Below, piece by piece: positions 24,940-41,646 of a DNA stretch of 64,000 bases; position 1 is the first letter of the stretch, and each line of letters starts with the position of its first letter. Below the pieces are notes generated by a model. That model did not search any database. It was not told the DNA's origin and saw only the letters and a list, made by a program, of their open reading frames with translations. The position numbers and the translations under genes were made by a program. Origin of the DNA: Legionella spiritensis (GTDB lineage: Bacteria > Pseudomonadota > Gammaproteobacteria > Legionellales > Legionellaceae); the NCBI RefSeq assembly GCF_900186965.1, contig NZ_LT906457.1, positions 1,824,501-1,888,500 on the forward strand, read 5' to 3'.

Positions 24940-25031
24940 GGCTTTTCGTCACTCGCACTATAGTCTGTATTAATACATCCTGAACACGCTCATCCAAACA
25001 GCTTGCAATGTTAACCCCTTCCGGGGGCTGG

Positions 25032-25427: not shown

Positions 25428-25502
25428 CGGGACTCCATGTTCCTTACAATACACGCGGCGCATTATAACTTATAATCAGGAGAATAGCTTGTGTTTGCTT
25501 TC

Positions 25503-26057: not shown

Positions 26058-26166
26058 AATTATTCCTTCCCGGCCATATTTTATATTTCATTCGCGACAT
26101 TATCATCAGTATACTACGCTTTCGTTAATTTTCACTTACCACCGACAACCCGGGTACACTCAAACT

Positions 26167-27327: not shown

Positions 27328-27384
27328 CTTTACGCTCTGTGCACCATGCCAGGATACTTAATTTGCAAGCGTAAGGAAATAGCA

Positions 27385-28470
27385 ATGAATACCCTTTATA
27401 TTGACCCTGATATTGAAAAAGCCTCCACAATCCCGTCCCGTTTTTATACATCGCAGGACTGGTTTGAACGCAGCAAGGAAAAAATTTTTGCGAAAACCTG
27501 GCAATTTTGCCTTGGTATGGAATCACTCCAGTCCAGAAACCAGCTGATACCGTTCACCCTGCTTCCCGATTTTCTAGACGAACCTTTGTTATTTGTGCGT
27601 GACCACGAAGACACTATTCGCTGCTTAAGTAATGTCTGTACCCACCGCGGGAAAGTATTGGTTGAATCTCCATGTACGGCGCAAAAAATAAAATGCGCCT
27701 ATCACGGACGCCGATTTAGCCTTTGCGGTGACATGCTGCATATGCCCGAATTTGAAAAAACCAGGGATTTTCCCTCCGAACGGGATAATCTGACTCGTGT
27801 TCCTTTCGAGAGGCTGGATCCATTCATTTTTGCGTCCTTATCCCCTCAGGCCTCTTTCCAGGACGTGTTCAGCGACTTGAAAGAGCGCCTTTTCTGGCTT
27901 CCCATGGAAAACATGCGACTGGATATTCAACGCAGCAAGGATTATCTGGTCAGGGGACACTGGGCATTGTATTGTGAAAATTATCTGGAGGCGCTGCATA
28001 TCCCCTTTTTACATCATGGACTAAGGCAAGTCATTGATTGCACGACCTACACCACCGAATTGTTCCGGTATTGCAATCTGCAATTAGCCCTGGCCAAAGA
28101 TGGCGAAGAGCGGTTTGATTTGCCCAGGGACTCCCAGGATTACGGCAAACAGGTTGCCGCTTATTACTATTGGATATTTCCCAATACCATGCTTAATTTT
28201 TACCCGTGGGGCTGCTCGGTCAATGTGGTCAAACCGCTTGCCGTTAATTTAACCAAAGTATCTTTCCTGACCTATGTTCTTGATGAGAGCAAGCTCGGCA
28301 AGGGAGCCGGAGGCGATCTGCATCAGGTTGAACTTGAGGATGAAGCGGTTGTTGAATCCGTGCAAAAAGGCATTCACTCCCGTTTTTATGACACAGGACG
28401 ATTTTCACCGACCAAAGAACAGGGTACCCACCATTTTCAGCGTTTACTCTGCGAATTTCTTAATGATTAG
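27385..28470 (+). CDS. Rieske non-haem iron oxygenase, alpha subunit
   Basis: 361 residues from ATG 27385 (AAGGA upstream). The Rieske cluster ligands are Cys85-x-His87 and Cys104-x2-His107. The catalytic iron site is in ENYLEALHIPFLH, with the third acidic ligand probably in the late VELEDEAVVESV helix. The arrangement resembles the single-chain oxygenases of the choline/carnitine monooxygenase branch rather than aromatic dioxygenases. No reductase or ferredoxin gene is adjacent, so electrons must come from elsewhere. An amino acid permease follows 51 nt later and may import the substrate. Confidence 0.88.
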   Translation: MNTLYIDPDIEKASTIPSRFYTSQDWFERSKEKIFAKTWQFCLGMESLQSRNQLIPFTLLPDFLDEPLLFVRDHEDTIRCLSNVCTHRGKVLVESPCTAQKIKCAYHGRRFSLCGDMLHMPEFEKTRDFPSERDNLTRVPFERLDPFIFASLSPQASFQDVFSDLKERLFWLPMENMRLDIQRSKDYLVRGHWALYCENYLEALHIPFLHHGLRQVIDCTTYTTELFRYCNLQLALAKDGEERFDLPRDSQDYGKQVAAYYYWIFPNTMLNFYPWGCSVNVVKPLAVNLTKVSFLTYVLDESKLGKGAGGDLHQVELEDEAVVESVQKGIHSRFYDTGRFSPTKEQGTHHFQRLLCEFLND

Positions 28471-28521
28471 AGCGGAAGCATCCGAACCTGAATCGCACAC
28501 CATCATGGAAGAGAATAAACG

Positions 28522-29961
28522 ATGTATGAGTCATCCAGTGAAAACAATCTGCACCGACCATTAAATGCCCGTACCCTGGGCATGATTACCCTTGGCGGCT
28601 CGCTGGGAACCGGCATTTTTCTGGCCAGCGGCAACGCGTTATCATTAGCCGGCCCGGGCGGTACTCTGATGGCATACCTGATCATGGGAGTGATGGTCTA
28701 TTATCTGATGACCGGCCTGGGTGAAATGGCAGCATTCATGCCTACCTCCGGCTCGTTTTACGTGTATGCGTCCCGATTTGTCGATCCTTCCCTCGGTTAT
28801 GCACTGGGATGGAATTACTGGTATAGCTGGGCCGTCACCATCGCCTCGGAAATTTCTGCAACATCACTGGTCATGCAGTTCTGGTTTCCCGACAGCTCTC
28901 CGATGATCTGGTGCACTCTTTTTTTAACACTGGTTACAGGATTCAACGCCATCTCCACAAAAACATTCGGCCAGGCCGAATACTGGTTTTCCTTTATTAA
29001 AATCACTGTCGTTATCCTGTTCATCATTATTGGTTCGCTCATTGTGCTGGGGATGACCTCCTGCCACCCGGGCAGATTTCAATACTGGAGGATTGGCGAC
29101 GCGCCATTTCATGGCGGTTGGCTGGGCATACTAGGCGCGTTCATGATTGCCGGTTTCTCGTTTCAGGGAACGGAGTTAATAGGCATAGCGGCGGGAGAAA
29201 GTCACGATCCGGGCGTTAATGTCCCCAAAGCGGTAAAAATGGTATTCTGGCGAGTTCTGTTATTTTTTATTTTATCCCTTTTTATCATTAGCCTCTTGAT
29301 TCCGTACACATCGCCTCAACTGATGTCGTCCGATATTGTCACCAGCCCTTTTACCCTTGTTTTCACCCAATACGGCAAGGTATTTGCCGCCACAATCATG
29401 AACAGTGTCATTCTCATTGCCATTTTATCCACGGCCAATTCCGGTATGTATGTTGCCAGCAGAATGCTCTGGTTTCTGGCCAGAGAGGGTCATATGCCGC
29501 CGACGTTTGCCAGGTTGAACCGACGAGGCGTGCCCATTCCTGCTCTGGCAGCCACCTGTGGGGTTGCCATGCTGGCTTTTTTATCATCATTTTTTGGTAA
29601 CGGCCAGGTCTATTTCTGGTTGCTCAACGCCGGTGGTCTGGCGGGATTTATTGTCTGGATGGGCATTGCCATCAGTCATTACCGTTTTCGCAAGGCTTAT
29701 CTCCATCAGGGCAAGGATCCAGCACTTCTTCCTTATCTGGCCAAAGGATTTCCCTATGGCCCTCTGTGTGCGTTTGGCCTGTGTCTGCTCATTATCGGCG
29801 GCCAGAATTATCAGGCTTTTATGAATCACCACATTGACTGGCACGGTCTATTGGTATCTTATATTGGCTTGCCGCTATTTATCCTGATCTGGCTCGGCCA
29901 TAAATGGATAAAAAAAACCAGAATGGTCGCCCTGCGGGATTGTTGTTTTGACATCGAATGA
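28522..29961 (+). CDS. Amino acid permease, APC superfamily (LysP/GabP-like)
   Basis: 479 residues with about 12 membrane helices. The opening GMITLGGSLGTGIFLASG is the unwound first helix of the AAT family, and the later GFSFQGTELIGIAAGES and ISTANSG-like ILSTANSGMYV motifs fit proton-coupled amino acid importers. GGAAGAGA precedes the ATG. Placement after the Rieske oxygenase suggests linked uptake and oxidation of an amino acid or amine, but this is inference. The stop is at 29961, just before an AT-rich block. Confidence 0.9.
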   Translation: MYESSSENNLHRPLNARTLGMITLGGSLGTGIFLASGNALSLAGPGGTLMAYLIMGVMVYYLMTGLGEMAAFMPTSGSFYVYASRFVDPSLGYALGWNYWYSWAVTIASEISATSLVMQFWFPDSSPMIWCTLFLTLVTGFNAISTKTFGQAEYWFSFIKITVVILFIIIGSLIVLGMTSCHPGRFQYWRIGDAPFHGGWLGILGAFMIAGFSFQGTELIGIAAGESHDPGVNVPKAVKMVFWRVLLFFILSLFIISLLIPYTSPQLMSSDIVTSPFTLVFTQYGKVFAATIMNSVILIAILSTANSGMYVASRMLWFLAREGHMPPTFARLNRRGVPIPALAATCGVAMLAFLSSFFGNGQVYFWLLNAGGLAGFIVWMGIAISHYRFRKAYLHQGKDPALLPYLAKGFPYGPLCAFGLCLLIIGGQNYQAFMNHHIDWHGLLVSYIGLPLFILIWLGHKWIKKTRMVALRDCCFDIE

Positions 29962-29983
29962 CAGGGCAAATTATCAGCACGAC

Positions 29984-30022
29984 GTCATCAGAAACAACAA
30001 TCACACCGGCAATCCATTTCAG
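29984..30022 (+). repeat. 39-bp direct repeat, left copy
   Basis: 35 of 39 bases match the copy at 36492-36530 (shared GTCATCAGAAACAACAA and AATCCATTTCAG). The two copies bracket the AT-rich segment holding the hvf operon and the DoxX-NDH gene. In the right copy the reverse strand is the start of an outer-membrane-protein gene; here it is non-coding. It may be the duplicated edge of an inserted segment or a short repeated gene fragment. Confidence 0.6.
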
Positions 30023-30094
30023 TGATCCGCACATCAAAACCGATCCGGCATTAATTAGAAAAACTGGCACCTTATCTTTGCCCTCAAAAACCAC

Positions 30095-30559
30095 TTATCG
30101 ATCAAGTTTCAAATAATATTTTCTAATTAAATAATCAATCGATAATTTTCCTGAACCGGTACATAAGAGCATTAAAATCATTATTCCCCATTGCATGTGA
30201 TCAGTCAGACCGACCGCACCGTCAGGTGTCCATAAAAATTTATATGAGAAAACCGCAAATAAATTAAACAGAAAAAGTCCAAGAAAAACAACCCTGGATC
30301 CTAAGCCTAATGTAATCAATACAGGAAACCCAAGTTCACAAGCGGTTCCCAGGTAGGCAGCAAACGTAGGGGATATAACCGGTACCATGTATTCGTTCTG
30401 AAACAAGAAAATGGTTGACTGCCAATTACCAATTTTGGTTAAACCAGACAGGAAAAAAACCTGGGCCAAATAAAGGCGTGTTATAAGAATGAAAATCGGA
30501 GCAAGAAAATCAAAGATTTTATCATTTAATAAATAGGTCTTTGCTATAAACGTTTTCAT
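30095..30559 (-). CDS. hvfD: DoxX-family membrane protein of a copper-RiPP operon (HvfD-like)
   Basis: 154 residues, four predicted helices. FLSGLTKIGNW and the F-x-QNEYMVP-x-ISP loop are DoxX/DUF-type motifs, and the same QNEY-x-VP-x-x-SP loop recurs in the big fusion protein at 33110. DoxX proteins are inner-membrane proteins of uncertain redox role. Its ATG overlaps the DUF2063 gene by 4 nt, making it the last gene of a tight four-gene operon. The A+T content is visibly higher than in flanking genes. Confidence 0.83.
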   Translation of the reverse strand: MKTFIAKTYLLNDKIFDFLAPIFILITRLYLAQVFFLSGLTKIGNWQSTIFLFQNEYMVPVISPTFAAYLGTACELGFPVLITLGLGSRVVFLGLFLFNLFAVFSYKFLWTPDGAVGLTDHMQWGIMILMLLCTGSGKLSIDYLIRKYYLKLDR

Positions 30560-31335
30560 ATAGCCTCCAACGAAAAACGATTAATCCATTGATTGCGAAG
30601 GGCTTTAGTTAAAAGAACACCAATTTTCTCTTCACTAATCCATTGACTTAAGTCAGCTACTACGTTTTGCCATGCTATTTGGTTTCCAGATGATAAAAAT
30701 TCCAGAAGCAAATATTCCTCATTACTAATTAGCATAATACATGGTAAATCGTTATGTTGATAAATAACAATTTTTTCAGGATAACCCGAAATTTGTATTT
30801 CCTTATCCTCTTTAAAGTAATTCATAGACCATATTTGGTAAATAGGATAGTCAGAACCAAGTATTTTTAAATTTGGCGTCAAATGAAAACATAACGATTG
30901 AATAGCTCTATCTTCCAGCTTTGAAAAAGATTCAAAATCAAAGGGTTGGGCAGGAGAAAAAAGTTTTAATGTATGCCAATGCCATTCAATGGTACATAGC
31001 TCATGTAAATAAGGCAGTGCTTTAGCGGGCTCAAAACCAGCGATAAATTGAGGGAGGCTATCACCGTATTGATTGATGTCGTATTGGGTGGATTGATGTT
31101 GATTAATATAACGATGCAATAAAGCATACCAGAAAGAATCCCCCACCAAACGCAAACAGAGCGGGAATGTTGATTTCAAATGATTAAATAAAGTGGCGTG
31201 ATGGCTTTCGAGATACACCGCAATACCATCAAATTTTGATTGAGTGAACCGGTTGGATAACGGGTCTGACTGAACTTCTTCTCTAAACTGCGCTATCCAT
31301 TCGTGCTGGATTGCCTCAAGGAGAGTATTACGCAT
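30556..31335 (-). CDS. hvfC: DUF2063 RiPP maturation partner (HvfC/BufC-like)
   Basis: 259 residues. The N-terminal DUF2063 domain is recognisable by the helices around SKFDGIAVYLESHHATLFNH and YLHELCTIEWHWH. In MNIO systems this protein binds the precursor peptide and the DUF692 enzyme to present the substrate. It overlaps hvfB by 8 nt and hvfD by 4 nt, so all are co-translated. AT-rich like its neighbours. Function by analogy to the Haemophilus Hvf and Caulobacter bufferin systems. Confidence 0.85.
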   Translation of the reverse strand: MRNTLLEAIQHEWIAQFREEVQSDPLSNRFTQSKFDGIAVYLESHHATLFNHLKSTFPLCLRLVGDSFWYALLHRYINQHQSTQYDINQYGDSLPQFIAGFEPAKALPYLHELCTIEWHWHTLKLFSPAQPFDFESFSKLEDRAIQSLCFHLTPNLKILGSDYPIYQIWSMNYFKEDKEIQISGYPEKIVIYQHNDLPCIMLISNEEYLLLEFLSSGNQIAWQNVVADLSQWISEEKIGVLLTKALRNQWINRFSLEAI

Positions 31336-32197
31336 AATGATTCAAACTCCGCTCTGCCACTCGTTTTATTATAGCTTTCGCTTTAAGCATTTCTTCATAT
31401 AAGACAGAAAAATCAGGCAAATTATTATCCCACTCGATAATTGTGGGGGTATTGACAAAGAGGTTTTGGGCTTTTTCATAAAGTTGCCAAACGTCCTGAT
31501 AAATTCTATCGCTATGACTATCCAGTAAATAACCCTCTTCTTTTGAAAAGCCGCCAAGATGCATCTGCCATACGTGTCTGGCATTGATTGATTGAAGGTA
31601 TTTGTCTAAATCGTCGTTATGGTTATACCAGTTCACATATAAATTATTGACGTCCAATAAAATTCCACAACCTGTTTTCGTGCTAAGCTCATTAAGGAAT
31701 TCCGCTTCGGTTAACGTGTTTTGCTGGTAGCTTACGTAACGTGAAACGTTCTCAAACATGATTGCCTGGTTGAGATATTCCTGGACTCGATTTGTTTTTT
31801 CAATAATGAAAGCCAGTGTTTCCTCAGTATAAGGGAATGGGATAAGCTCATGAGTAAAAAATTTGTTGGCATGAGTCCAGCATAGATGATCTGATATCAG
31901 ACTCGAATTCAAACAACGGGCTAAATCCTTTATTTGTTGCAAATATTGATAATCTGGTTCGGAGGATGTGGCAATTGATAATCCAACGCTATGTAGACTC
32001 ATTGGATAAAACTCTGCGATTTCAAGCAATTGCTTAAATTGAATCCCTGATTGCCTGATATAATTATCAGCGAGAATTTCAAAATAATCGATAGAGGGCT
32101 GCCGATTTAATATGTCGTCTATATGTTCAAGCCGCAATCCAATGCCTGAACATCCTGAAAAACATGCGGCTTGATTAATAGAATTATTATTTGCCAT
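31328..32197 (-). CDS. hvfB: MNIO (DUF692) multinuclear non-haem iron oxidase, HvfB/BufB-like
   Basis: 289 residues, a TIM-barrel enzyme. Metal-binding landmarks appear in order: GIGLRLEH, SLHSVGLSI, SDHLCW, FENVSRY, LLDVNNLYVN, MHLGG, DSHSDR and IIEWDNNLPDF. Family members use two or three iron ions to convert peptide cysteines into oxazolone-thioamide or related groups. The gene begins 5 nt after the precursor gene, which fits modification of that peptide. It is the strongest diagnostic of the operon. Confidence 0.92.
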   Translation of the reverse strand: MANNNSINQAACFSGCSGIGLRLEHIDDILNRQPSIDYFEILADNYIRQSGIQFKQLLEIAEFYPMSLHSVGLSIATSSEPDYQYLQQIKDLARCLNSSLISDHLCWTHANKFFTHELIPFPYTEETLAFIIEKTNRVQEYLNQAIMFENVSRYVSYQQNTLTEAEFLNELSTKTGCGILLDVNNLYVNWYNHNDDLDKYLQSINARHVWQMHLGGFSKEEGYLLDSHSDRIYQDVWQLYEKAQNLFVNTPTIIEWDNNLPDFSVLYEEMLKAKAIIKRVAERSLNHYA

Positions 32198-32202
32198 TCT
32201 AT

Positions 32203-32457
32203 TTAGCTTTTAACCGTCCCGTTAACAAGTTTATCGCAAGTACCTTTGGGCAGGTAAATCCAGTCTTTTTCTGAGGCGTCTGTCTTGGATTGGCCAGCAC
32301 AAGCGTGTTGAGCGGTACCACAATCATTTTTGCCCGCTTTAGCCACACCCTGACATTTTTCCATATCATTTGTAGTTTCGGCACTGGCTGGTACGGTAGC
32401 AATTGAAAGCCCGGCGGCCATAACAGCAGCCATTGTTATTTTAGAAATATTATTCAT
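32203..32457 (-). CDS. hvfA: DUF2282 copper-binding RiPP precursor (HvfA/bufferin-like)
   Basis: 84 residues: a signal peptide to about 26 (ASA) and a mature part with Cys35, Cys46, Cys53 and Cys74. The KCQGVAKAGKNDC and LPKGTCDKL motifs are typical of DUF2282. In studied systems the cysteines are post-translationally modified by the DUF692 enzyme and the product binds copper in the periplasm. It is the first gene of the operon, preceded by AAAGGA and a good promoter candidate. Confidence 0.9.
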   Translation of the reverse strand: MNNISKITMAAVMAAGLSIATVPASAETTNDMEKCQGVAKAGKNDCGTAQHACAGQSKTDASEKDWIYLPKGTCDKLVNGTVKS

Positions 32458-32513
32458 AATGCCTGTCCTTTATTATATGATTAATCCATATGTTATTTAA
32501 TAACAACGTCATT

Positions 32514-32541
32514 AGTATAGTATCATTTTTCAATTTGTCAC
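32514..32541 (-). promoter_or_regulatory. Promoter candidate for the hvf operon
   Basis: On the minus strand GTGACA (32541-32536) and TATACT (32519-32514) are separated by 16 nt, 5 of 6 matches each to the sigma70 hexamers. It lies 57 nt upstream of the precursor start. No recognisable copper-regulator operator was found. Confidence 0.5.
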
Positions 32542-32758
32542 AGGATATAAATTGAACCTACATCTTTGAATTAATTGAAAAGATGGGAAAAAGAGTTACG
32601 CCACATTATTTTCCTCCAATATTGGGCAATACCCCTGATTTTTTTTGAATCGGATCTAAGCACAGATTTTTGATTTCCCACCGAACTGCTCTATCCATGC
32701 AATCTTCTAGTGACTGGTAAATTAAACCCGCACTGGGTATTTATCAGGCATCCTTAAG

Positions 32759-32933
32759 TAGTACTGTTTCCATTTAATTTTGACAGGTTAACTGTCATTC
32801 CCGCGAAGGCGGGAAACCATTCCTGATGTGGCTCAGTGCTTGATTCAGTATGGATCCCCGCCTTCGCGGGGATGACAAAAAGACAAACATTCTGTGCAAG
32901 CCAACCTGTCAAAACTAAATGGAAATGGTACTA
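32759..32933 (+). repeat. Element family A, intact 175-bp copy
   Basis: Terminal inverted repeats of about 30 bp (TAGTACTGTTTCCATTT at the left, reading TAGTACCATTTCCATTT from the right) end in TTGACAGGTT. Two internal hairpins, TTCCCGCGAAGGCGGGAA and CCCCGCCTTCGCGGGG, fill the middle. No open frame is inside. It is almost identical, in inverted orientation, to the copy at 35318-35492, and the pair encloses the DoxX-NDH gene. The rest of the gap to 33110 is AT-rich with no clear signal except an AAAGGGA ribosome site. Confidence 0.88.
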
Positions 32934-33109
32934 GGAAGGTAAATTTTAAGCACCTTGGGAAAATGACAACTATCGATCTTGATGAATACCTGTAACTTCA
33001 GGTTAAAAAAATGGTCCGCAATATAATTTTAAATTTGTGGCTATAATTAAATCCGAAGTTATTTGAAACAAAGGGATTTTTTTAAAATTTTTTTGAAAGG
33101 GATTCTTAT

Positions 33110-35320
33110 ATGCAGCAAGTAAATCATATATCGGCAACTCAGAAAATCAGTACGTTCTCAAGAAACATAGCGAGGTTTTTTGACACCTTTACCGATACTA
33201 TTGACTTTCTTGGCCGGATTGGATGGCCTGTAATTGATTTGGCATTTCGAATATGGATAGCGCAGCAAGTATTAGTCTCAGCGATTCTTTTAACTAACCA
33301 ATGGGATACTGCGGTTTATTTAGCCCAAAATGAATACCCGGTTCCATGGTTATCTCCTGAATGGGAGGCGCTGTTAGGAATATTGGCACAATTTATTGGC
33401 GGTATTTCCCTTCTTTTTGGCTTGTTTACCCGATGTGGGGCAGCGATTATTGCAGTATTCGCGGCTATGACCCAAATTTATTATCAACCCATAGATCTTA
33501 ATTTGCTCTGGATCACATTAATGTTGGGCTATGTGTTGAGAGGGCCAGGTCCCCTTTCTCTTGATAATTTGTTTGAGCATGGATTTAGCAGAAGTCCTTT
33601 GCCATTTGCAATGGCGATTGTAACCTTTGTAGATAAAGCAAGGGGTTTTTTTTCAAGTTTGTTTTTATTTCTTTTACGTATCTGGTTAATGATTTCATTG
33701 TTGCTGGCCAATCAAAACGTCGAAATAATTTCTCCTGATAAGCTACAATCTCTTACGTCGTGGCTACCTTTAAGTTCAGCATCAATCGTTTTTAGCCATT
33801 TTTCATTATTTATTGCCCTTTTTTTGGGAGTTGGCTTTGCTACCCGCTTTGTTGCAATTCTGGGATTAATAGTTGTTCTTTTTAGTTTTACTCCAGAAGT
33901 AACGGGGTTTGATTTATACTGGGTGATGGTGATGGCCATTTTATTTGTTTCAGGTCCGGGATTCATATCATTGGATCATGTGATTTTTAATGCTTTGAAA
34001 AAACATTATCCGCAGCTTTCTGGCAAACCGGCATTTAGCCTGGACAACTTACCACGCGTAGTTATTATTGGTGCCGGGTTTGGGGGTATTGCTTGCGCCA
34101 AGGCATTACGTCATATGCCAGTCAAAATCACTTTAATTGACAGACATAATTATCATCTTTTCCAACCATTTTTATACCAGATTGCTACTGGAAGTCTCTC
34201 GCCAGCTGATATTGCCATTTCGATTCGATCCATATTTATAGAGCAATTTAATGCAGAAATATTATTGGGAGATGTTACAGATATTAATAAAGAGGAGCGA
34301 CTCGTTATAGCTGATAATTTTACCATTCCCTATGATTATCTGGTGATAGCAACAGGATCAACCCATAGCTATTTTGGTAAGGATAATTGGGCTCCTTATG
34401 CGCCAGGGTTAAAAACAATTAATGATGGTACCTCCGTACGTAGCCGCATAATCAGAACGTTTGAACTAGCCGAGCTTGCGCAAAGTGATGAAGAACACAA
34501 GCAATTGTTAAATTTCATCATTGTGGGAGCAGGACCTACTGGTGTTGAGCTTGCCGGGGCAATAGCGGAACTTGCACGATTTGGGTTCGTAAAGGAATTT
34601 CGTCACTTTGACCCATCGTCAGCAAATATTATCCTGGTTCAGGCGGCACCCCGCATTTTGCCCACTTTTTCAGAAAAAATCTCGGCAAAAGCTCACAGCT
34701 TTTTAGAAAGTCTGGGTGTTACAGTATTAGTGAATAGTATGGTCGAGCAAATTGATGGTGATGGCGTCATTATTAATAATGAAAGAATTTATTCAAAATC
34801 GGTTTTCTGGGCGGCGGGGGTTGCTGCTTCTCCGGCTGCAAAATGGCTTCAAGTAGACGCTGATCCAGCGGGTCGTGTTATAGTGAATGACGATCTGACC
34901 GTAGCTAATTACGCAAATATTTTTGTTATAGGCGATACTGCCGCCTCAAATGCCTGGAAAGGTAAGCCAGTACCTGGCATTGCTCCTGCCGCAAAACAAT
35001 GCGGTGTTTATGTAGCCAAAGTCATTTCTAAAAGGATTTATAATAATCAATCAAAAAACAAACCGTTCAAATACGTTCACTTGGGTAGCCTTGCTACTGT
35101 TGGTCGTAAAGCCGCCGTTGCTGAGTTTAATAGTTTTAAAATCAGCGGAGAACTGGCCTGGTGGTTTTGGGGCGGGATCCATGTCTTTTTCCTGGTTGGC
35201 TCTCGAAATCGTTTAAGTGTTATTTTAAACTGGTTTTGGTCTTATTATACGTTTCGTGCCAATAATTTGCTTATAACGGATGATTCATTGAAGACAAGAG
35301 ATAAATCAGAAACAAACTAA
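33110..35320 (+). CDS. DoxX-DoxX-NDH-2 fusion: membrane protein with C-terminal NADH:quinone oxidoreductase-like domain
   Basis: 736 residues, preceded by AAAGGGA 7 nt before the ATG. Residues about 45-150 and 190-300 are two DoxX modules, each ending in a GPG-x-x-SLD motif (RGPGPLSLDNL, SGPGFISLDHV). The first shares the QNEY-x-VP-x-x-SP loop with HvfD. From about 315 follows a type II NADH dehydrogenase: FAD motif VVIIGAGFGG, NAD motif IIVGAGPTGVELAG, FAD-binding IFVIGDTA, and a C-terminal amphipathic region (WWFWGGIHVFFLVG). It probably links NADH oxidation to a membrane electron carrier. Its TAA stop is at the border of a repeat element. Codon use is AT-rich. Confidence 0.87.
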   Translation: MQQVNHISATQKISTFSRNIARFFDTFTDTIDFLGRIGWPVIDLAFRIWIAQQVLVSAILLTNQWDTAVYLAQNEYPVPWLSPEWEALLGILAQFIGGISLLFGLFTRCGAAIIAVFAAMTQIYYQPIDLNLLWITLMLGYVLRGPGPLSLDNLFEHGFSRSPLPFAMAIVTFVDKARGFFSSLFLFLLRIWLMISLLLANQNVEIISPDKLQSLTSWLPLSSASIVFSHFSLFIALFLGVGFATRFVAILGLIVVLFSFTPEVTGFDLYWVMVMAILFVSGPGFISLDHVIFNALKKHYPQLSGKPAFSLDNLPRVVIIGAGFGGIACAKALRHMPVKITLIDRHNYHLFQPFLYQIATGSLSPADIAISIRSIFIEQFNAEILLGDVTDINKEERLVIADNFTIPYDYLVIATGSTHSYFGKDNWAPYAPGLKTINDGTSVRSRIIRTFELAELAQSDEEHKQLLNFIIVGAGPTGVELAGAIAELARFGFVKEFRHFDPSSANIILVQAAPRILPTFSEKISAKAHSFLESLGVTVLVNSMVEQIDGDGVIINNERIYSKSVFWAAGVAASPAAKWLQVDADPAGRVIVNDDLTVANYANIFVIGDTAASNAWKGKPVPGIAPAAKQCGVYVAKVISKRIYNNQSKNKPFKYVHLGSLATVGRKAAVAEFNSFKISGELAWWFWGGIHVFFLVGSRNRLSVILNWFWSYYTFRANNLLITDDSLKTRDKSETN

Positions 35321-35492
35321 TACCATTTCCATTTCGTATTGACAGGTTGGCTTGCACAGAATGTTTGTCTTTTTGTCATCCCCGCGAAGGCGGGGATCCA
35401 TACTGAATCAAGCACTGAGCCACATCAGGAATGGTTTCCCGCCTTCGCGGGAATGACAGTTAACCTGTCAAAATTAAATGGAAACAGTACTA
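35318..35492 (-). repeat. Element family A, intact 175-bp copy, inverted relative to 32759
   Basis: The reverse complement matches the copy at 32759-32933 with only about three differences near one end. Length and both internal hairpins are the same. The left edge supplies the TAA stop of the DoxX-NDH gene (35318-35320). No coding content. Confidence 0.88.
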
Positions 35493-35546
35493 ATTGGTGT
35501 AAGGGCTTACGGAGCCTAAGCACAGATAACCTCATAACGACAGCCT

Positions 35547-36512
35547 CTAATAAAACGTCCAGATGATATTCATTGCCGAAAGATATTGTATTTTATCCTG
35601 TACGCCATTTAATTGTTGCAGCAGGGGCAATGAAACACCTAATTGCACTATGAACTGTTTGGTCGAATAGGAAAGTGACGGCGTCATATACACAATATTG
35701 CCGCCGGAATCCGGATCATATTGACCGGCAATTTTATCTTTTTTATCGTATTCGCCATCCACTTCCAGTAAACCAAACAGAATATATTTGTTGGTTGCGC
35801 TCGCAATGTTTCGACCCAATCCAAATTGATAATAATATTGGGAACCTCGATGAATGTTTTGATACGGTGCGATCCAGGTGCCTCCAGGAGAAACGAACCA
35901 ATACCAGTCCACATACATACGATTGAAAGTACCGCCAATAAAATAACTGGGCGTGCCATAACCGGTTGCGGGATCTTTGCGAGCCGAACCCGTGGGCGCC
36001 TTTGCCGCCACAAGTACAGTGGCCTGTGCCGTATAGAGCCGGTTGGAAGCGTTATAGAAAGCGTACTCCGCCTGAAATCCCGTATCCCCTATCCCCGAGG
36101 AATGTCGAAAGTCCTCAATATAATTAACCGCGACCGGTAGATAAACTAATACCGCCAATGAGTCGCTTATCCCATAATTCAATGCGGCGGTGATATTGGG
36201 ATATTGCTCGTTGGCCAATTGCTGATAAGAAGGCTGCAGAAATATCTGGGTATTACCCTTGTCAACAATATCCTGGCCAAACGAATAAAAAGGCCCGGGC
36301 TGCTGCGCCGTGGGCAGGGAATAATTACCGGTCTCGGGAGGTGCATCCGGCGCAATTGCCTTCGGATTGGTTTTTGCAAACAATGGCGTCAGAAATAAGG
36401 CACACACCACTATAAGCAAGACGTGATGATTTTTTCTAGCAGGCAACCTTATCGCTTTCAAACACGATAACCCTGGCGAAAACAACACGCTGTCATCAGA
36501 AACAACAACCAT
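35547..36512 (-). CDS. Outer-membrane beta-barrel protein, MetA-pathway phenol-degradation family-like
   Basis: 321 residues. A signal peptide lies after a 27-residue leader (hydrophobic segment LLIVVCALFLTPLFA), so the true start may be a TTG or GTG inside; ATG 36512 is used here. The rest alternates short polar turns with Tyr/Phe-rich strands and ends in IIWTFY, the aromatic C-terminus of outer-membrane barrels. Organisation fits the MetA-pathway phenol-degradation family of putative channels. The first codons lie within the 39-bp repeat. Substrate is unknown. The GC content is higher than in the hvf genes. Confidence 0.65.
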   Translation of the reverse strand: MVVVSDDSVLFSPGLSCLKAIRLPARKNHHVLLIVVCALFLTPLFAKTNPKAIAPDAPPETGNYSLPTAQQPGPFYSFGQDIVDKGNTQIFLQPSYQQLANEQYPNITAALNYGISDSLAVLVYLPVAVNYIEDFRHSSGIGDTGFQAEYAFYNASNRLYTAQATVLVAAKAPTGSARKDPATGYGTPSYFIGGTFNRMYVDWYWFVSPGGTWIAPYQNIHRGSQYYYQFGLGRNIASATNKYILFGLLEVDGEYDKKDKIAGQYDPDSGGNIVYMTPSLSYSTKQFIVQLGVSLPLLQQLNGVQDKIQYLSAMNIIWTFY

Positions 36513-36530
36513 ATCGGTAATCCATTTCAG
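36492..36530 (+). repeat. 39-bp direct repeat, right copy
   Basis: 35 of 39 bases match the copy at 29984-30022. It overlaps the first codons of the outer-membrane-protein gene. The adjacent CATTCC-C-GGAATG palindrome (36533-36545) is an additional small hairpin. The remainder of the gap to 36826 shows only a promoter. Confidence 0.6.
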
Positions 36531-36789
36531 GTCATTCCCGGAATGATTTTATCCGGAGGTACTCATCAAACGGACATATTGATGTTTCCTGAGTCCATCC
36601 ATTATTAGAACGTATAATACTTCCTTTCGTCAACCAGGAGCTCTTCTGTAAACGGGCGTAGTTTGCTTATTTTATCCAATCCGGTCTATTTATAGGCAAT
36701 CCCGTAAATATCCGGATGAAAAGCGCGTAAAACCGAATGCCCACACCCAGAGGTGTACTCAATTCACGAAGATCAAATAATAGACAAAG

Positions 36790-36798
36790 TGCTATAAT
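36790..36798 (+). promoter_or_regulatory. Extended -10 promoter element for the gene at 36833
   Basis: TGCTATAAT, identical to the element at 2583, lies 34 nt upstream of ATG 36833. There is no good -35 box. Confidence 0.5.
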
Positions 36799-36832
36799 AT
36801 AGCTACATATTATACATTCCGGTTTATTGATT

Positions 36833-37906
36833 ATGAGAAAATCTCGTTTTTTCGGCAAAGGTAGTGGGTCTCAATGGGACAAACTTATAAATATAAATTC
36901 CGCCATGTGGTCAACGAGGTCAACGGAGTCAAGGGTTCTTTCAAAAGGATATACTCCCATATCGATAGGCGGATCAAAGCTTGACAAAAATAACGTCGTA
37001 GTCAAACTGAAAACATTAAGAACCAGTAGCTTGGTAGCACGAACCATGCGTGACGTGGAATTTGACAGACAAAGAAGAAAATGGCTGAAAAGCCCGAATC
37101 AAATAGTACCGCTGGGGCTGCAGGGTCAGGCGCAGTTGGTTTCGTATGATAAAGAAAATGGCACGGTTGATATGGAACAAACTGCGAAAAATTACCGTGG
37201 GCATCACCAACCCGAATCGTCTGAACACATTGGCTTCGGGCTATCGTATTCTGATGAATACACGTTATACCACCTGATGACGCTGGTAAGTGGTAATTCC
37301 AGTATTGTTCTGGTGGATCCGACTATATTACCCGACACTCATAAATATCACCAAAGCGTCAGCAGCGGCCCTATCGTATACGACCCTGATGGTACCCCAA
37401 GTATCCACACCCACGAGAATGAAATCACCCTTCAGGATGTTCCGTCCTTTCTTATCGCAGGCGCCATCAGAAGAGTCGGCCGGCGAGTGGAAATAGCAAC
37501 GAATCCATTTTTTATTGACGTACACAATCCTGAAACTCCCAGGGAAATTGTGAGAAAATCGCAAGAAGCCACCATGGCATTTTTAAATTTAAGCACTATT
37601 GACAGAACCGGAAGTCCCATACCCGGCATGGGGCGGATATCAGAGCAGGAAATCTCCGAGATCGTTACTGAAGTAGTAGCTCTTAACATGGAAGTTAACC
37701 TTGAAATATTGTCAATGAGCGGTCAAGAACAGGATATCTACTACTCAATCCTGCAAGAAATGAGACAACATCAACACAAGCCTTCCACAACATACCACTC
37801 TATTGAGGTGGTAGAGGATACAGAGCAAAAGAAAGAAGGCGTTGACACCGGGAAAGAGGAAATCAGCCCCGAACAGGAAGAAAGCGGTCCAAAAACTAAA
37901 ATTTAG
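36833..37906 (+). CDS. Orphan protein with Glu-rich C-terminus, candidate effector
   Basis: 357 residues from ATG 36833; TTG 36827 would add two. The N-terminus is basic and Ser-rich. The centre contains HTHENEITLQDVPSFLIAGAI, a His-x-His-Glu segment that could bind metal. The last 40 residues are packed with Glu and Lys (EVVEDTEQKKEGVD, then EEISPEQEES), resembling the E-block often seen in Dot/Icm substrates. I recognise no family. It is monocistronic with its own promoter and terminator. Confidence 0.6.
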   Translation: MRKSRFFGKGSGSQWDKLININSAMWSTRSTESRVLSKGYTPISIGGSKLDKNNVVVKLKTLRTSSLVARTMRDVEFDRQRRKWLKSPNQIVPLGLQGQAQLVSYDKENGTVDMEQTAKNYRGHHQPESSEHIGFGLSYSDEYTLYHLMTLVSGNSSIVLVDPTILPDTHKYHQSVSSGPIVYDPDGTPSIHTHENEITLQDVPSFLIAGAIRRVGRRVEIATNPFFIDVHNPETPREIVRKSQEATMAFLNLSTIDRTGSPIPGMGRISEQEISEIVTEVVALNMEVNLEILSMSGQEQDIYYSILQEMRQHQHKPSTTYHSIEVVEDTEQKKEGVDTGKEEISPEQEESGPKTKI

Positions 37907-37930
37907 CGCCGGGCGTACCGTTTTATTTAC

Positions 37931-37955
37931 AGGGAGAGCGATGTCTCCCTTTTTT
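37931..37955 (+). terminator. Rho-independent terminator after the orphan gene
   Basis: AGGGAGA and TCTCCCT form a 7-bp stem with a 6-nt loop (GCGATG), followed by a T6 tract. It starts 25 nt after the stop at 37906. Confidence 0.75.
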
Positions 37956-38120
37956 CTATTCCGGATTCACCGAGCCTGAAAATAACCCACCATTTTTTCG
38001 TTTCAATACACCCCCAAGAAAATCATAATTTGAACAATTTGTTTGCTTTATGTAAAATAATGTCTTAAAATATACCGTCACTCATCTCGACAAGCCCTGT
38101 TTTTAAAGAAAGGAATACCC

Positions 38121-38441
38121 ATGTTTAAAAGATTGGCAACAACACGAAACAGCAGCAATTTTTTTGCACGATCATTCGCCACCAGCAACAGTCCAAGACC
38201 ACCATTTCAGGTGCGCGTCCCAATCAGCACAAATAGCGAAATCTTTGCCGCCATCCGATCCAATGAAGAAGACGCCAGTAAACTTAAGCAGTTAGGTGAC
38301 ACGTTAAAGGCCCAGCATTATGAGGTTCATCATAGAGACGGCGAACTTTTTGTTGCGCAAACCAGAGAAAAATTGCTCCATGATATCGATCAAGCTGCAA
38401 GCGAGGTTGAGCATCAACCTGCCGGTCAATACAAACCTTAG
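38121..38441 (+). CDS. Small protein with mitochondrial-presequence-like N-terminus
   Basis: 106 residues; AAGGA lies 7 nt before the ATG. Residues 1-29 hold Lys/Arg at 3, 4, 9, 17 and 26 and no Asp or Glu, are rich in Ser, Thr and Phe, and contain ARSFATS, which fits the R-x-F/Y followed by Ala/Ser form of the mitochondrial processing site. The rest, from about 45, is an amphipathic acidic/basic mixture with no recognised domain. It could be an effector addressed to mitochondria, or the resemblance may be chance. No signal peptide of bacterial type is present. Confidence 0.55.
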   Translation: MFKRLATTRNSSNFFARSFATSNSPRPPFQVRVPISTNSEIFAAIRSNEEDASKLKQLGDTLKAQHYEVHHRDGELFVAQTREKLLHDIDQAASEVEHQPAGQYKP

Positions 38442-38477
38442 GTTCACAGAACCCGGCAGGATTATCCTCTCCTGCCG
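38441..38477. other. Palindrome and hairpin between convergent genes
   Basis: GGTTCACAGAACC (38441-38453) is an odd palindrome that repeats the outer ends of the family B element at 41395-41579. Adjacent CGGCAGGA/TCCTGCCG (38454-38477) gives an 8-bp stem. No T-run follows on either strand, so termination is only possible. Confidence 0.4.
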
Positions 38478-38980
38478 CGCTCAGGATTGCGATATTGCAA
38501 CCACAGTAACGCGAAACCGATAATCGGCAGGAAGATGTCGGACCAGAAAATAACGCCAGCGTTACCGGGAGCAAAATTATGGGCCACAATCATTTGATAG
38601 ATATGTCCGCCGGCTGCTCCCCATAAAAACATGGCCGGCGCAATAACCGTTGCCGCTCGAAATCCAAGCCCGCCAAAGAAACTGATGACGCCGACGACGG
38701 CAAACCCCAGGCTTGCGAAACCGACTTCCAGCTGAAACGGGCTTTGCGACCAGCCGATAAACTGAGCGGCCATCTCCCCGAAAAACACGTGCATGACGAA
38801 GTTATAGAAGGAACTGATACCAATGTTAAACAACAGGTAATAGGAAAACAGAATGTCAATAACCGTGGCCTTCTGCAATGGCCTGGGCTTAAAAGCCAAT
38901 GAAACTCCGGCAAACAGCAGGCTTAAAACAAAAAAAGTCAATGTAAAATTACTTATTACAAAAATAATCAACTGTTCCAC
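38462..38980 (-). CDS. DUF6790-type integral membrane protein
   Basis: 172 residues with five to six predicted membrane helices. The conserved YYLLFNIGISSFYNFVMHVFF and FLWGAAGGHIYQM segments fit the DUF6790 family. The C-terminus is short and basic (RNPERGRRG), predicted cytosolic. Function is unknown. It is followed upstream, after 64 nt, by egtD on the same strand, but co-transcription is uncertain. Confidence 0.7.
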   Translation of the reverse strand: MEQLIIFVISNFTLTFFVLSLLFAGVSLAFKPRPLQKATVIDILFSYYLLFNIGISSFYNFVMHVFFGEMAAQFIGWSQSPFQLEVGFASLGFAVVGVISFFGGLGFRAATVIAPAMFLWGAAGGHIYQMIVAHNFAPGNAGVIFWSDIFLPIIGFALLWLQYRNPERGRRG

Positions 38981-39044
38981 GTTCGCTACCTCCCGGTATC
39001 ATTGCCTTTGTTATAAAAATGTTATCGTCAACACGCCACATGAC

Positions 39045-40046
39045 CTAAATCGTATTGCTTTTATCAACCTGCCACAATGAATCGATAAAGTAGTTTTTAC
39101 TGTCGGTAAAATTTTGAAGACGCTGAAAACCATTATCATGGGCCAGCTGTGTAATTTGAGTCGGCAGGTATTTAAACGAATACTCCACATGAATGGGCTC
39201 CAGCAGGTGGAAATGAAAGGTTCGATTTAACTTTCCGATAACAACATCCTGTTCGCAGCGACTCAGCAAATAACTTTCCATTGCCCCGGAATGAACATTG
39301 TAAACACCATAATGTTCAAATTGATCAATAATAAAATTGGCATCCAGTTCGGTGTTCATACGCCGTAATAAATTCAGATTAAACTGACGGGTAATCCCGT
39401 CACTATCATTATATGCCCGAGTCAGGACATGGATATCCTTGCGCAAATCAAAACCAATCAACAGATAATCACCATGATTAAGGGATTGCCAAAGATTACG
39501 GAGAAATTGATTGGCGGCGGCAAAATCATAATTACCAATGCTCGAACCCAGAAAAAGAACCAGATTTTTGTGTGAGGAATGGCGGGTAAGCCACTGAATA
39601 CCGTGCAAATAATCTGCCTTAAGACCCGTGATATCAAGCCGGGGCCACTGTTTTGCAATTTTTTTTTCAAGATCAATCAGATATTGCCGGGATATATCCA
39701 CCGGATAGTAGGTAAAGCGCAAATTCCGTGTCATGAATTCATCAAGCAACAGACTGGTTTTAATACCCTCTCCTGGCCCTAATTCAATAAGGTTGCATGT
39801 CTCTTTGGTAAGAAAACCGGCAATTTCCTGTTTGTAACGAGTTAAAATGTCCAACTCGCAATTGGTCAAATAATAATCCGGATGACGGGTGATCTCGTTA
39901 AACAACTTCGAACCGTTGGCGTCATAAAAATATTTTGACGGAATTCGCTTGGTCGGCATCGACAAGCCATGATTAATATCGCGCAGGAAGTCTCTGTCGC
40001 CCTCCTCCTCAAACCGATCATCAATGATCTGAATCGTTGCGCCCAT
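39045..40046 (-). CDS. egtD: L-histidine N-alpha-methyltransferase EgtD
   Basis: 333 residues, the usual EgtD length, with AAGGA before the ATG. SAM and histidine site landmarks are PSKYFYDANGSKLFNEIT, IELGPGEGIKTSLLL and LFLGSSIGNYD. The enzyme adds three methyl groups to histidine to form hercynine, the first step of ergothioneine synthesis. It starts 11 nt after egtB on the same strand. egtA, egtC and egtE are not in the window. Confidence 0.93.
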   Translation of the reverse strand: MGATIQIIDDRFEEEGDRDFLRDINHGLSMPTKRIPSKYFYDANGSKLFNEITRHPDYYLTNCELDILTRYKQEIAGFLTKETCNLIELGPGEGIKTSLLLDEFMTRNLRFTYYPVDISRQYLIDLEKKIAKQWPRLDITGLKADYLHGIQWLTRHSSHKNLVLFLGSSIGNYDFAAANQFLRNLWQSLNHGDYLLIGFDLRKDIHVLTRAYNDSDGITRQFNLNLLRRMNTELDANFIIDQFEHYGVYNVHSGAMESYLLSRCEQDVVIGKLNRTFHFHLLEPIHVEYSFKYLPTQITQLAHDNGFQRLQNFTDSKNYFIDSLWQVDKSNTI

Positions 40047-40057
40047 AAGTTGTTTCC

Positions 40058-41332
40058 TTACATAGTGACAGCCAGTCTAATACCACAAAATGACCACCGT
40101 TTCTCCGGCTGATAAAAATTACGGTAGGTGGGGCGAATGTGATCACGGGGCGTCACGCAACATCCTCCCCGCAACACCATTTGGTTATTCATAAATTTCC
40201 CGTTATATTCGCCCAGGCTGCCGGGTAATGGCTTGTAACCAGGATAAGGCAGGTAAGCACTTGCCGTCCATTCCCATAAATCACCGAAAAATTGCTGTGC
40301 GACACCGTCAGCCGCCTTGTCACAAGCCTGCGGATGAAAGAGTCCGGACTCCATGAAATGACCTTCATTACAAATGAGGCCGCTTCGCAAGACAAAATAT
40401 TCCCATTCTTCCTCGGTAGGTAAGCGATACCCGCGCCATCGTGCATAGGCATCAGCCTCATAGTAGCTCACATGGCTGACCGGCTCACAAGGATCCAGTT
40501 CTTTCAGCCCGGACAGGGTAAAGACATGCCACCGATCGTTCTGCCTGCTCCAGTAAAGCGGAGACTGCCAGCCGAAACGTTGTATGGCATCCCAACCATC
40601 GGCCAGCCACCATTGCGGCTGGGAATAGCCGCCCTGCTCGATAAATTGCAGATAATCCCCGTTCGTCACCAGCTTTGGCGCTATGGCATAGGGGTTGATA
40701 AACGCCTGATGTTGCGGCCTCTCGTTATCAAAACAGAAACCGTCACCAAAATAACCAATCGTGGTTAAACCACCCTCCATGGCTATGGATGGTTCGCTAC
40801 TACCACCGCCTGTACACACACTCCGGGAGGAAGACAAGGATCGGTAAACGGGTAAATCCGGTTGAATGGAAAGATTATGTTTGATGTCCATGAACAAAAG
40901 CTCTTGATGCTGCTGTTCATGCTGCAGGCCAACCTCAATGATCGGCGCAATAGCCACAAATTCCTCCTCCGTCGCCCGGATCAGAAGATTTAAAACCCCT
41001 TCATCAACGCTCCGGCGATAGGCATACACCGTTTCGGCTGACGGTCTGGACAGCAAACCTCTACGGGGCCTCGGATAAGGGCTGCCAATAGTCTGATAAT
41101 AGGAGTTAAACAAATAATTGAAATGGGGATCAAATTCTTTGTAGCCACACGGCTTGTCGCTTAAAACAAAGGTTTCAAAAAACCACGAGGTGTGTGCCAG
41201 ATGCCACTTTGGAGGACTGACATCCTCACAACTCTGAATGACATAATCCTCGGTAATTAGAGGATGACAAATCTCTTCGGTAGTTTTTCTAACCGCTTGA
41301 AATCGTTCGCTGAGTTGTTTACGTGTTATCAA
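40058..41332 (-). CDS. egtB: Ergothioneine biosynthesis sulfoxide synthase EgtB
   Basis: About 424 residues from TTG 41332 (GAGA just upstream); ATG 41410 is an in-frame alternative with a less likely 26-residue extension. An N-terminal DinB-like bundle carries the iron ligands HLAHTSWFFE and H-x3-H-x-E (LQHEQQHQELL); the C-terminal FGE-sulfatase domain has DLWEWTASAYLPYPG and VLRGGC. The enzyme joins hercynine to a thiol donor (gamma-glutamylcysteine or cysteine) with oxygen. It is the first gene of egtBD. A family B repeat lies just upstream in its likely promoter region. Confidence 0.92.
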   Translation of the reverse strand: MITRKQLSERFQAVRKTTEEICHPLITEDYVIQSCEDVSPPKWHLAHTSWFFETFVLSDKPCGYKEFDPHFNYLFNSYYQTIGSPYPRPRRGLLSRPSAETVYAYRRSVDEGVLNLLIRATEEEFVAIAPIIEVGLQHEQQHQELLFMDIKHNLSIQPDLPVYRSLSSSRSVCTGGGSSEPSIAMEGGLTTIGYFGDGFCFDNERPQHQAFINPYAIAPKLVTNGDYLQFIEQGGYSQPQWWLADGWDAIQRFGWQSPLYWSRQNDRWHVFTLSGLKELDPCEPVSHVSYYEADAYARWRGYRLPTEEEWEYFVLRSGLICNEGHFMESGLFHPQACDKAADGVAQQFFGDLWEWTASAYLPYPGYKPLPGSLGEYNGKFMNNQMVLRGGCCVTPRDHIRPTYRNFYQPEKRWSFCGIRLAVTM

Positions 41333-41394
41333 AATAATCTCTTTCCATATCTTAATAATTAAACTAAAAAAACACGTATCGCATTGAATATTAT

Positions 41395-41579
41395 AGGTTC
41401 TGTGAACCAATTTTTCTTCGCACCATTTTTGCGAAAAGGCAGTAGCCCGTAAAGAGGCCTATGGCCGTATTGCGGGTTTGGTGTGCCAATTATGAACGTT
41501 ATCCCGCATTACAGCGAAGCCTTCATGACGGGCTACAGGAAATTATTATTTTCGGAAAAAAATTTGTTCACAGAACCTA
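41395..41579 (+). repeat. Element family B, long copy with outer inverted repeats
   Basis: AGGTTCTGTGAAC (41395-41407) and GTTCACAGAACCT (41567-41579) form perfect 13-bp outer inverted repeats. Inside lies the family core of about 100 bp, from AGTAGCCCGT (41441) to ACGGGCTACAGG. It shares GGCCGTATTGCGGGTTTGG and ATCCCGCATTACAGCG with the copy at 23938. It sits between egtB and the czc operon terminator. Confidence 0.75.
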
Positions 41580-41595
41580 GAGTGTATAGCAATTT

Positions 41596-41635
41596 AAAAA
41601 TGAAATAAACGACGTCATGTTCTTCGCAGACGTCG
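41596..41635 (-). terminator. Terminator candidate of the czcCBA operon
   Basis: On the minus strand CGACGTC and GACGTCG form a 7-bp stem with a 12-nt loop, followed by TTTATTTCATTTTT. It starts 12 nt after the czcA stop. Confidence 0.6.
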
Positions 41636-41646
41636 GGAAAATCCGT

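What the first reader, a model, noticed from the sequence alone, without database searches (positions are those of the whole stretch)
32759..35492. DoxX-DoxX-NDH-2 fusion gene enclosed by two near-identical inverted 175-bp elements
One 736-residue protein joins two DoxX membrane modules, each ending in GPG-x-x-SLD, to a type II NADH dehydrogenase. It lies between copies of the same element in inverted orientation that differ at about three positions, forming a composite-transposon-like unit with no transposase. The fused first DoxX shares its QNEY loop with HvfD of the adjacent copper-RiPP operon, suggesting that an NADH-driven redox step serves that system. Few differences between the copies imply recent duplication or gene conversion.
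Basis: partly seen in the sequence, partly recalled or inferred. Interest (0 to 1): 0.72.

Follow-up and report, generated by a model that had tools for sequence, protein, structure and literature searches.

The report
Membrane-fused NADH dehydrogenase beside copper-peptide operon
A Legionella-family bacterium carries an NADH-oxidising enzyme fused to two small membrane modules next to genes for a copper-binding peptide; the fusion is real and found in other bacteria, while the repeats around it are ordinary scattered DNA repeats, not a transposon carrying the gene.

Summary

The composite-transposon reading fails. The element is a MITE with 22 copies of at least 89% identity in this genome. 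The left copy equals the family consensus; the right differs at three sites. An inverted pair this close is expected by chance. Seven relatives have the gene (one broken) without the element.

The left element sits in a patatin-gene remnant, the right at the fusion's stop codon. The bufferin operon and fusion probably arrived by horizontal transfer: 90-91% DNA identity to L. tucsonensis for fusion and MNIO, 76% for rpoB, no intact fusion in 10 congeners.

The fusion clade looks like one origin across three proteobacterial classes. Bufferin genes lie within 6.7 kb in 11 of 16 loci, and separate NDH-2 and DoxX genes share bufferin operons in rhizobia. But 0 of 4 non-Legionella fusions in the systematic sample have an MNIO nearby, and other partners recur. 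A redox role for bufferins is plausible, not shown. A 2017 paper already noted the L. pneumophila homologue.

The parts
33110..35320 (+). DoxX-DoxX-NDH-2 fusion gene, 736 aa
   Evidence: dN/dS 0.12 against the L. tucsonensis gene
33236..33589 (+). DoxX module 1 (about residues 43-160), with NEYPVP loop and GPGPLSLD
   Evidence: Pfam DoxX 44-123; hhalign against 7 bufferin-operon DoxX 99.8%, score 178
33650..34015 (+). DoxX module 2 (about residues 181-302), with GPGFISLD
   Evidence: hhalign against module 1 98.7%; no NCBIfam hit on its own
34052..35278 (+). NDH-2 domain: FAD motif GAGFGG, NADH motif GAGPTG, GDTA, APAAKQ, and NDH2_C
   Evidence: naming of the motifs recalled
32756..32934 (+). 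MITE copy, identical to the family consensus, inserted in a patatin-gene remnant
35317..35495 (-). MITE copy in inverted orientation, starting at the fusion's stop codon
32686..32756 (+). patatin-gene remnant left of the MITE
   Evidence: 79% over 73 bp to the patatin gene in L067
32936..32992 (+). patatin-gene 3' end right of the MITE
   Evidence: blastn block and tblastn of patatin residues 308-341
32203..32457 (-). bufferin precursor gene (DUF2282, HvfA-like)
   Evidence: PF10048, 2.1e-23
31328..32197 (-). MNIO enzyme gene (DUF692, HvfB-like)
   Evidence: PF05114, 2.1e-93
30556..31335 (-). DUF2063 partner gene (HvfC-like)
   Evidence: PF09836, 3.7e-14
30095..30559 (-). DoxX gene of the bufferin operon (HvfD/HvfX-like)
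   Evidence: PF07681, 1e-13; NF050144, 50 bits against a cut-off of 80

Best explanation
The gene encodes a membrane-anchored type II NADH:quinone oxidoreductase. Two DoxX modules (about four helices each, inferred) hold the flavoprotein on the cytoplasmic face; it oxidises NADH without pumping protons and reduces membrane quinone. It entered this genome together with the bufferin (DUF2282-MNIO-DUF2063-DoxX) operon by horizontal transfer from an L. tucsonensis-like donor. It most likely works as an accessory of copper or redox-stress loci: it keeps NADH oxidation and quinol supply going when copper harms iron-sulphur enzymes (recalled knowledge), and the quinol or the DoxX modules may feed the reduction of Cu(II) or protein thiols that bufferins need. 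The inverted elements are MITEs that inserted later, in dead or intergenic DNA, and have no part in this. Shown: domains, conserved motifs, purifying selection, MITE nature, synteny, clustering of the fusions in one clade. Inferred: transfer direction, topology, quinone as acceptor, the link to bufferin function.
For: Domains and motifs; solved NDH-2 relatives by profile, best 9mqy at 1.6e-120. In the window protein, positive charges sit at the N-terminus, between the modules and after module 2 (4, 5 and 4, against 0-1 in the other loops), which puts these parts inside. Transfer: fusion 90.0% and MNIO 91.3% DNA identity to G101 (L. tucsonensis), rpoB 75.8%, rpoB with 1.5-kb flanks 76.9% over 7029 bases; 0 of 10 other genomes of its genus have an intact fusion. 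Constraint: dN/dS 0.12. Bufferin link: MNIO within 3.3 kb in 6 of 8 Legionella-family fusions and at 6.6 kb in a seventh; 4 of 4 fusion-bearing plasmid loci looked at have a DUF2282 gene within 6 kb; separate DoxX and NDH-2 genes on one strand with DUF2282, MNIO and DUF2063 in three rhizobial plasmids and one sampled genome, G513. Fusions group in one set, SH-aLRT 100. MITE. Copper precedent: E. coli NDH-2 Cu(II) reduction (PMC1847454 and PMC3817396, passages).
Against: MNIO is near 0 of 4 non-Legionella fusions in the class and phylum samples (two have a flank under 1 kb on one side) and near 2 of 78 other NDH-2 regions. G113 keeps patatin-fusion-ADC with no MNIO nearby. 76 of 83 MNIO-bearing family genomes lack a nearby fusion. 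The plasmid loci were picked by hand from the top of a list. CxxC and VPP, parts of the published Cu(II)-reductase signature, are absent in 12 of 12 fusions, and a review says the E. [quoted passage not shown] hvfD is only 82% identical to the L. tucsonensis copy, dS 1.09, so the imported block may be a mosaic. The rpoB region is the only core baseline. No structure could be predicted.
Confidence: 0.5

Rival explanations
1. The fusion is a general NADH-recycling dehydrogenase tied to 3-hydroxybutyrate/acetoacetate or lipid turnover; the bufferin operon is only a fellow passenger in the same stress island.
For: Patatin-like and ADC-like genes lie at the fusion in 5 of 8 Legionella-family loci (in one, patatin is in two pieces) and patatin persists as a remnant in the window. 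BDH-like, ADC-like, NDH-2 and patatin genes form a one-strand run without bufferin genes in G274 and G386. BDH-like and patatin genes stand near NDH-2 in the three rhizobial loci and in G513 and G712. 3-Hydroxybutyrate oxidation makes NADH (established knowledge).
Against: In the window the local patatin is dead and no ADC gene is left at the site, yet the fusion is intact beside the bufferin operon; in G081 and G067 bufferin genes are near but I saw no patatin or ADC in the listing. Other copies do remain in the window's genome: ADC-like 75%, patatin 68% DNA identity.
Confidence: 0.3
2. The two inverted elements and the gene between them are a composite-transposon-like mobile unit.
For: Two near-identical inverted elements bracket exactly one long gene; the homologous block with L. 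tucsonensis ends at the right element; counted directly, the right copy's nearest relative is the left copy (4 differences, next 7).
Against: Seven relatives carry the gene without the element; hvfABCD, outside the elements, is homologous to the same relative; the family is dispersed, 41 merged copies; the left element lies in a patatin remnant homologous to the relative on both sides; the left copy is the consensus, so it is near every copy, and no substitution is shared.
Confidence: 0.04
3. The DoxX modules only anchor the protein and have no redox role.
For: Module 2 is missed by Pfam and NCBIfam models; many NDH-2s of the same clade lack DoxX.
Against: Module 1 keeps EYPV in 12 of 12 fusions aligned, though not in the Paraburkholderia fusion printed; it compares better with bufferin-operon DoxX than with other DoxX (score 178 against 69; only 7 and 3 sequences).
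Confidence: 0.35

Closest known systems
lpg0671 of the L. pneumophila H4 cluster beside H2 (lpg0665-0669), PLoS One 2017, PMC5413113 (passages read)
   Same: A DoxX domain in a much larger NADH dehydrogenase membrane protein, beside GIG/bufferin operons; the layout of G093 fits it.
   Different: The passages I read do not mention two DoxX modules, a clade or a mechanism; the window lacks the H4 genes and has MITEs.
[quoted passage not shown] Pfam Pyr_redox_2 + NDH2_C)
   Same: Full flavoprotein domain with FAD, NADH and putative quinone motifs.
   Different: About 312 extra N-terminal residues with two DoxX modules.
Bufferin / GIG / hvf operons (DUF2282, MNIO, DUF2063, DoxX), PMC12452194 (passages read)
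   Same: The four core genes lie next to the fusion.
   Different: NDH-2 is not a core gene; 'NADH' and 'oxidoreductase' do not occur in that paper's main text.
Palindromic MITEs
   Same: 31-nt terminal inverted repeats (90% complementary), about 175 nt, many copies.
   Different: No autonomous partner was identified; at E<=1e-8 there was no match in 6 of 7 other genomes and only two partial cores in the seventh.

Membership tests
Type II NADH dehydrogenase | Two Rossmann folds binding FAD and NADH plus the NDH2 C-terminal domain | tested here: met
   Pyr_redox_2 8e-47, NDH2_C 9.8e-10, both over cut-off; PDB NDH-2 chains
Type II NADH dehydrogenase | NADH:quinone oxidoreductase activity | not testable with these tools
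   needs an enzyme assay
DoxX family | DoxX domain | tested here: met
   module 1 over the Pfam cut-off; module 2 by profile comparison only
Bufferin operon component | Constant co-occurrence with DUF2282/MNIO/DUF2063 | tested here: inconclusive
   11 of 16 fusion loci, but 0 of 4 in the non-Legionella systematic sample
E. coli-type Cu(II)-reductase NDH-2 | CxxC and VPP, parts of the published signature | tested here: not met
   absent in 12 of 12 fusions; signature from PMC1847454 passages
Composite transposon | Unit moving as a block, with the site empty in relatives | tested here: not met
   gene present at the hvf locus of relatives without the elements; the fusion is the only long ORF between the elements
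MITE family | Short, terminal inverted repeats, many dispersed copies | tested here: met
   target duplication not worked out

The most novel reading that the evidence does not exclude
Bufferin copper-buffering loci in several proteobacterial classes recruit a dedicated NADH-driven electron supply: a DoxX-type quinone partner with an NDH-2, separate in rhizobia and fused in Legionella, Paraburkholderia and Azospirillum, that reduces copper or bufferin thiols at the inner membrane.
Probability: 0.27. Interest if true: 0.65.

Novelty: new variant of a known kind. Interest (0 to 1): 0.42.

Why it matters
DoxX is a core bufferin-operon protein of unclear role (passages of PMC12452194 and PMC13097082). 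A natural fusion of two DoxX modules to an NADH:quinone reductase, apparently arisen once and kept under selection, ties DoxX to NADH and quinone redox chemistry and makes that role testable. If the link to bufferins is real, copper-binding peptides would have a dedicated electron source. The MITE result is a caution: two matching inverted repeats around a gene mean little without the genome-wide copy number.

Tried and rejected
Rejected: composite transposon; recent duplication or gene conversion of the elements; the NCBIfam HvfX model as evidence of bufferin-type DoxX (it also matched DoxX from two loci without MNIO, one more strongly than any fusion); the CxxC copper signature. Promoter-like and terminator-like sites around the gene are no more than in shuffles. 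Rfam gave nothing in 25000-42000. Phage records: 22 with a match, none covering 80% of the query. The search for an empty site in the genus failed: relatives have other genes after the permease. A first rpoB comparison mixed strands and was redone. An earlier count said MNIO within 5 kb in 7 of 8; the correct figures are 6 of 8 within 3.3 kb and the seventh at 6.6 kb. Literature: 'DoxX'+'NDH-2'+'fusion' 0 papers; 'DoxX'+'NADH dehydrogenase'+'fused' 0; 'lpg0671' 2 papers, of which I read passages of one; one search listed 10 of 11 papers, none on this fusion by title; some searches were used as listings only, except that led to PMC12538549, in which DoxX, HvfX, NADH and oxidoreductase do not occur. 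Structure prediction never started.

Full report
The window is G000:C1:1824501-1888500 of a 3.35-Mb genome. It belongs to the Legionella family: G101, of the same family code, has a contig of the same length (2,776,985) as Legionella tucsonensis NZ_LNZA01000001.1, and the fusion there is 91% identical. G093 is probably L. pneumophila-like; this is inferred from its gene layout and the layout printed in PMC5413113 (passages).

The gene. ORF 33110-35320 gives 736 residues. Pfam sees DoxX, Pyr_redox_2 and NDH2_C. The second DoxX module is missed by Pfam but is clear by profile comparison (98.7%). GxGFGG, GxGPTG, GDTA and APAAKQ are invariant in seven intact Legionella-family fusions; that APAAKQ is the quinone motif is recalled. 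In the window protein positive charges put the N-terminus, the linker and the NDH-2 domain on the same side, as expected for an enzyme that uses cytoplasmic NADH; the hydropathy scan counted 5-8 helices over the 12 fusions, and 5 in the window protein, not a firm 8. dN/dS against L. tucsonensis is 0.12.

The elements. The 179-bp element has 22 copies of 89% identity or more (153-179 nt) in the genome and, with shorter and older ones, 45 places by my hand list, 41 after merging tandem ones. In 20,000 random placements, at least one inverted pair within 3 kb appeared in 52% of draws for the 41 and 15% for the 20 youngest copies. The left window copy has no difference from the majority consensus of 21 copies; the right one has three, of which one is also seen in four other copies and two are its own; none is shared with the left copy, apart from two edge columns where the consensus is a gap. 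By direct count the right copy's nearest copy is the left one (4 differences; next 7), which a star-like family with the left copy at the consensus explains. At E<=1e-8 the element has no match in 6 of 7 other genomes tested, and the seventh (G101) has two partial cores only.

What the elements interrupt. Aligned to L. tucsonensis (L067), the window is homologous over 30095-32547 (87%), 32686-32756 (79%, patatin gene) and 32936-35321 (90%, patatin 3' end and fusion). So the left element lies in a patatin remnant, most of the patatin gene is gone, and the right element begins at the fusion's stop codon, where homology ends. No match to the element appears in the seven relative loci compared (L067-L073). 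The genome keeps an ADC-like gene (75%) and a patatin gene (68%) elsewhere.

Origin. Fusion DNA is 90.0% and MNIO 91.3% identical to L. tucsonensis, while rpoB is 75.8% and the 7-kb rpoB region 76.9%. None of the 10 other genomes of the genus has an intact fusion; G009 has a C-terminal remnant. Horizontal transfer is the best reading. hvfD (82%, dS 1.09) fits less well than the rest, so the block may be a mosaic.

Neighbourhoods in the family. Of 143 genomes, 8 have a full-length fusion, one of them (G138) broken into three frames. MNIO lies 0.7-3.3 kb away in six, 6.6 kb in G138, and far away in G113. Patatin-like and ADC-like genes are at or near the fusion in five of eight (L067, L068, L069, L070, L072). 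Pfam names were obtained for the L067 genes; the others were recognised by their first residues, and in L070 the patatin is in two pieces. In G081 the order is MNIO-DUF2063-fusion on one strand, the fusion taking the place of DoxX. MNIO genes occur in 83 of 143 genomes, so the fusion is an accessory, not a core part. Five NDH-2-like genes of 41-49% identity (G129, G082, G072, G079, G088) have no MNIO nearby (one has one 62 kb off, four none on that contig).

Beyond the family. The fusion profile was searched in 369 genomes of the class (E<=1e-60) and 398 of the phylum (E<=1e-90); in each genome only the two best candidates were scored, so the lists are lower bounds. All places listed outside the family were fetched with about 9 kb on each side where contigs allowed, 82 regions. 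Four are fusions (G451, G261, G837, G582); a fifth gene, G442, is cut at its start by the contig end. MNIO is near 0 of 4 fusions and 2 of 78 other regions (G513, G712). Plasmid records chosen by hand from the top of the lists (14 loci, so a biased set) include four fusions: two Azospirillum brasilense, with DUF2282-MNIO-DUF2063 about 6 kb downstream (and DoxX in the annotated record), and two Paraburkholderia, with DUF2282 and DoxX genes divergent from the fusion; MNIO is truncated in one and not detected in the other. Three rhizobial loci have BDH-patatin-DUF2282-MNIO-DUF2063-DoxX-NDH2-cyclase on one strand. The other seven have no bufferin gene in the flanks held. In all, 11 of 16 fusion loci have an MNIO or DUF2282 gene within 6.7 kb. 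Two glycoside-hydrolase genes (GDE, MGH1-like) lie within about 5 kb of the fusion in four of eight non-Legionella loci, a rival partner.

Tree. In a quick tree of 110 NDH-2 domains the 15 fusions and the cut G442 gene form one set with SH-aLRT 100; bufferin neighbourhood needs 5 changes and the patatin/BDH/ADC neighbourhood 6. One Azospirillum row (L155) was labelled there as without bufferin genes because only 6 kb were held; one search shows them just beyond, so 5 is probably one too many. Several long branches limit the deep structure, and SH-aLRT was the only support. So the fusion probably arose once, and association with bufferin genes came or went several times.

Mechanism. NADH oxidation by the NDH-2 domain and quinone reduction are inferred from family. 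PMC3817396 and PMC1847454 (passages) cite Cu(II) reduction and better growth in copper for E. coli NDH-2; PMC7558416 (passages) says the reduction was later attributed to quinols. CxxC and VPP are absent here. PMC5413113 (passages) notes DoxX likeness to the thiosulphate:quinone oxidoreductase subunit DoxD. Together these favour an enzyme that supplies quinol and sustains NADH oxidation at copper or redox stress loci, with a bufferin-specific reduction step as a bolder reading. The metabolic rival (3-hydroxybutyrate, patatin, ADC) is nearly as good.

Novelty. The homologue lpg0671 was noted as a DoxX-containing NADH dehydrogenase beside GIG-like operons in 2017. I found no paper on the two-module fusion or its clade in the searches; the library holds few subscription papers, and one of the two papers naming lpg0671 was not opened.

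Noticed in passing
29975-30022 and 36483-36530: A 48-bp direct repeat (85% identical) flanks the whole block hvfABCD - fusion - MITE - ORF 35547-36512; the right copy covers the start of that ORF. It may mark the edges of an insertion or rearrangement.
   Followed up: partly
30021-30060, and G000:C1:1104046-1104085 (L163): A 40-bp stretch just inside the left junction recurs elsewhere in the genome at 88%.
   Followed up: partly
L078, L079, L080, L081: NDH-2 C-terminal remnants (about 95-113 residues, 52-55% identical, with stops) lie 0.9-1.9 kb from MNIO genes in G009, G093, G060 and G084; L078 also holds an integrase gene. Described only.
   Followed up: partly
L156, L252, L260: Rhizobial plasmids carry one-strand runs BDH-patatin-DUF2282-MNIO-DUF2063-DoxX-NDH2-cyclase.
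   Followed up: partly
L174, L175, L251, L262: Fusion genes in Azospirillum, G451 and G261 sit within about 5 kb of GDE and MGH1-like glycoside hydrolase genes.
   Followed up: partly
G000:C1:1355907-1356683: One full and four partial (118-120 nt) MITE copies stand in tandem, the partial ones at 151-bp spacing.
   Followed up: no
39045-41410: A histidine-specific methyltransferase and an FGE-sulfatase/DinB_2 gene lie side by side, looking like an ergothioneine-type EgtD/EgtB pair (naming recalled).
   Followed up: no
G000:C1:411889-415971: The rpoB match of this genome is 30-33 bases longer than in the 13 other family genomes searched (4083 against 4050-4053).
   Followed up: no
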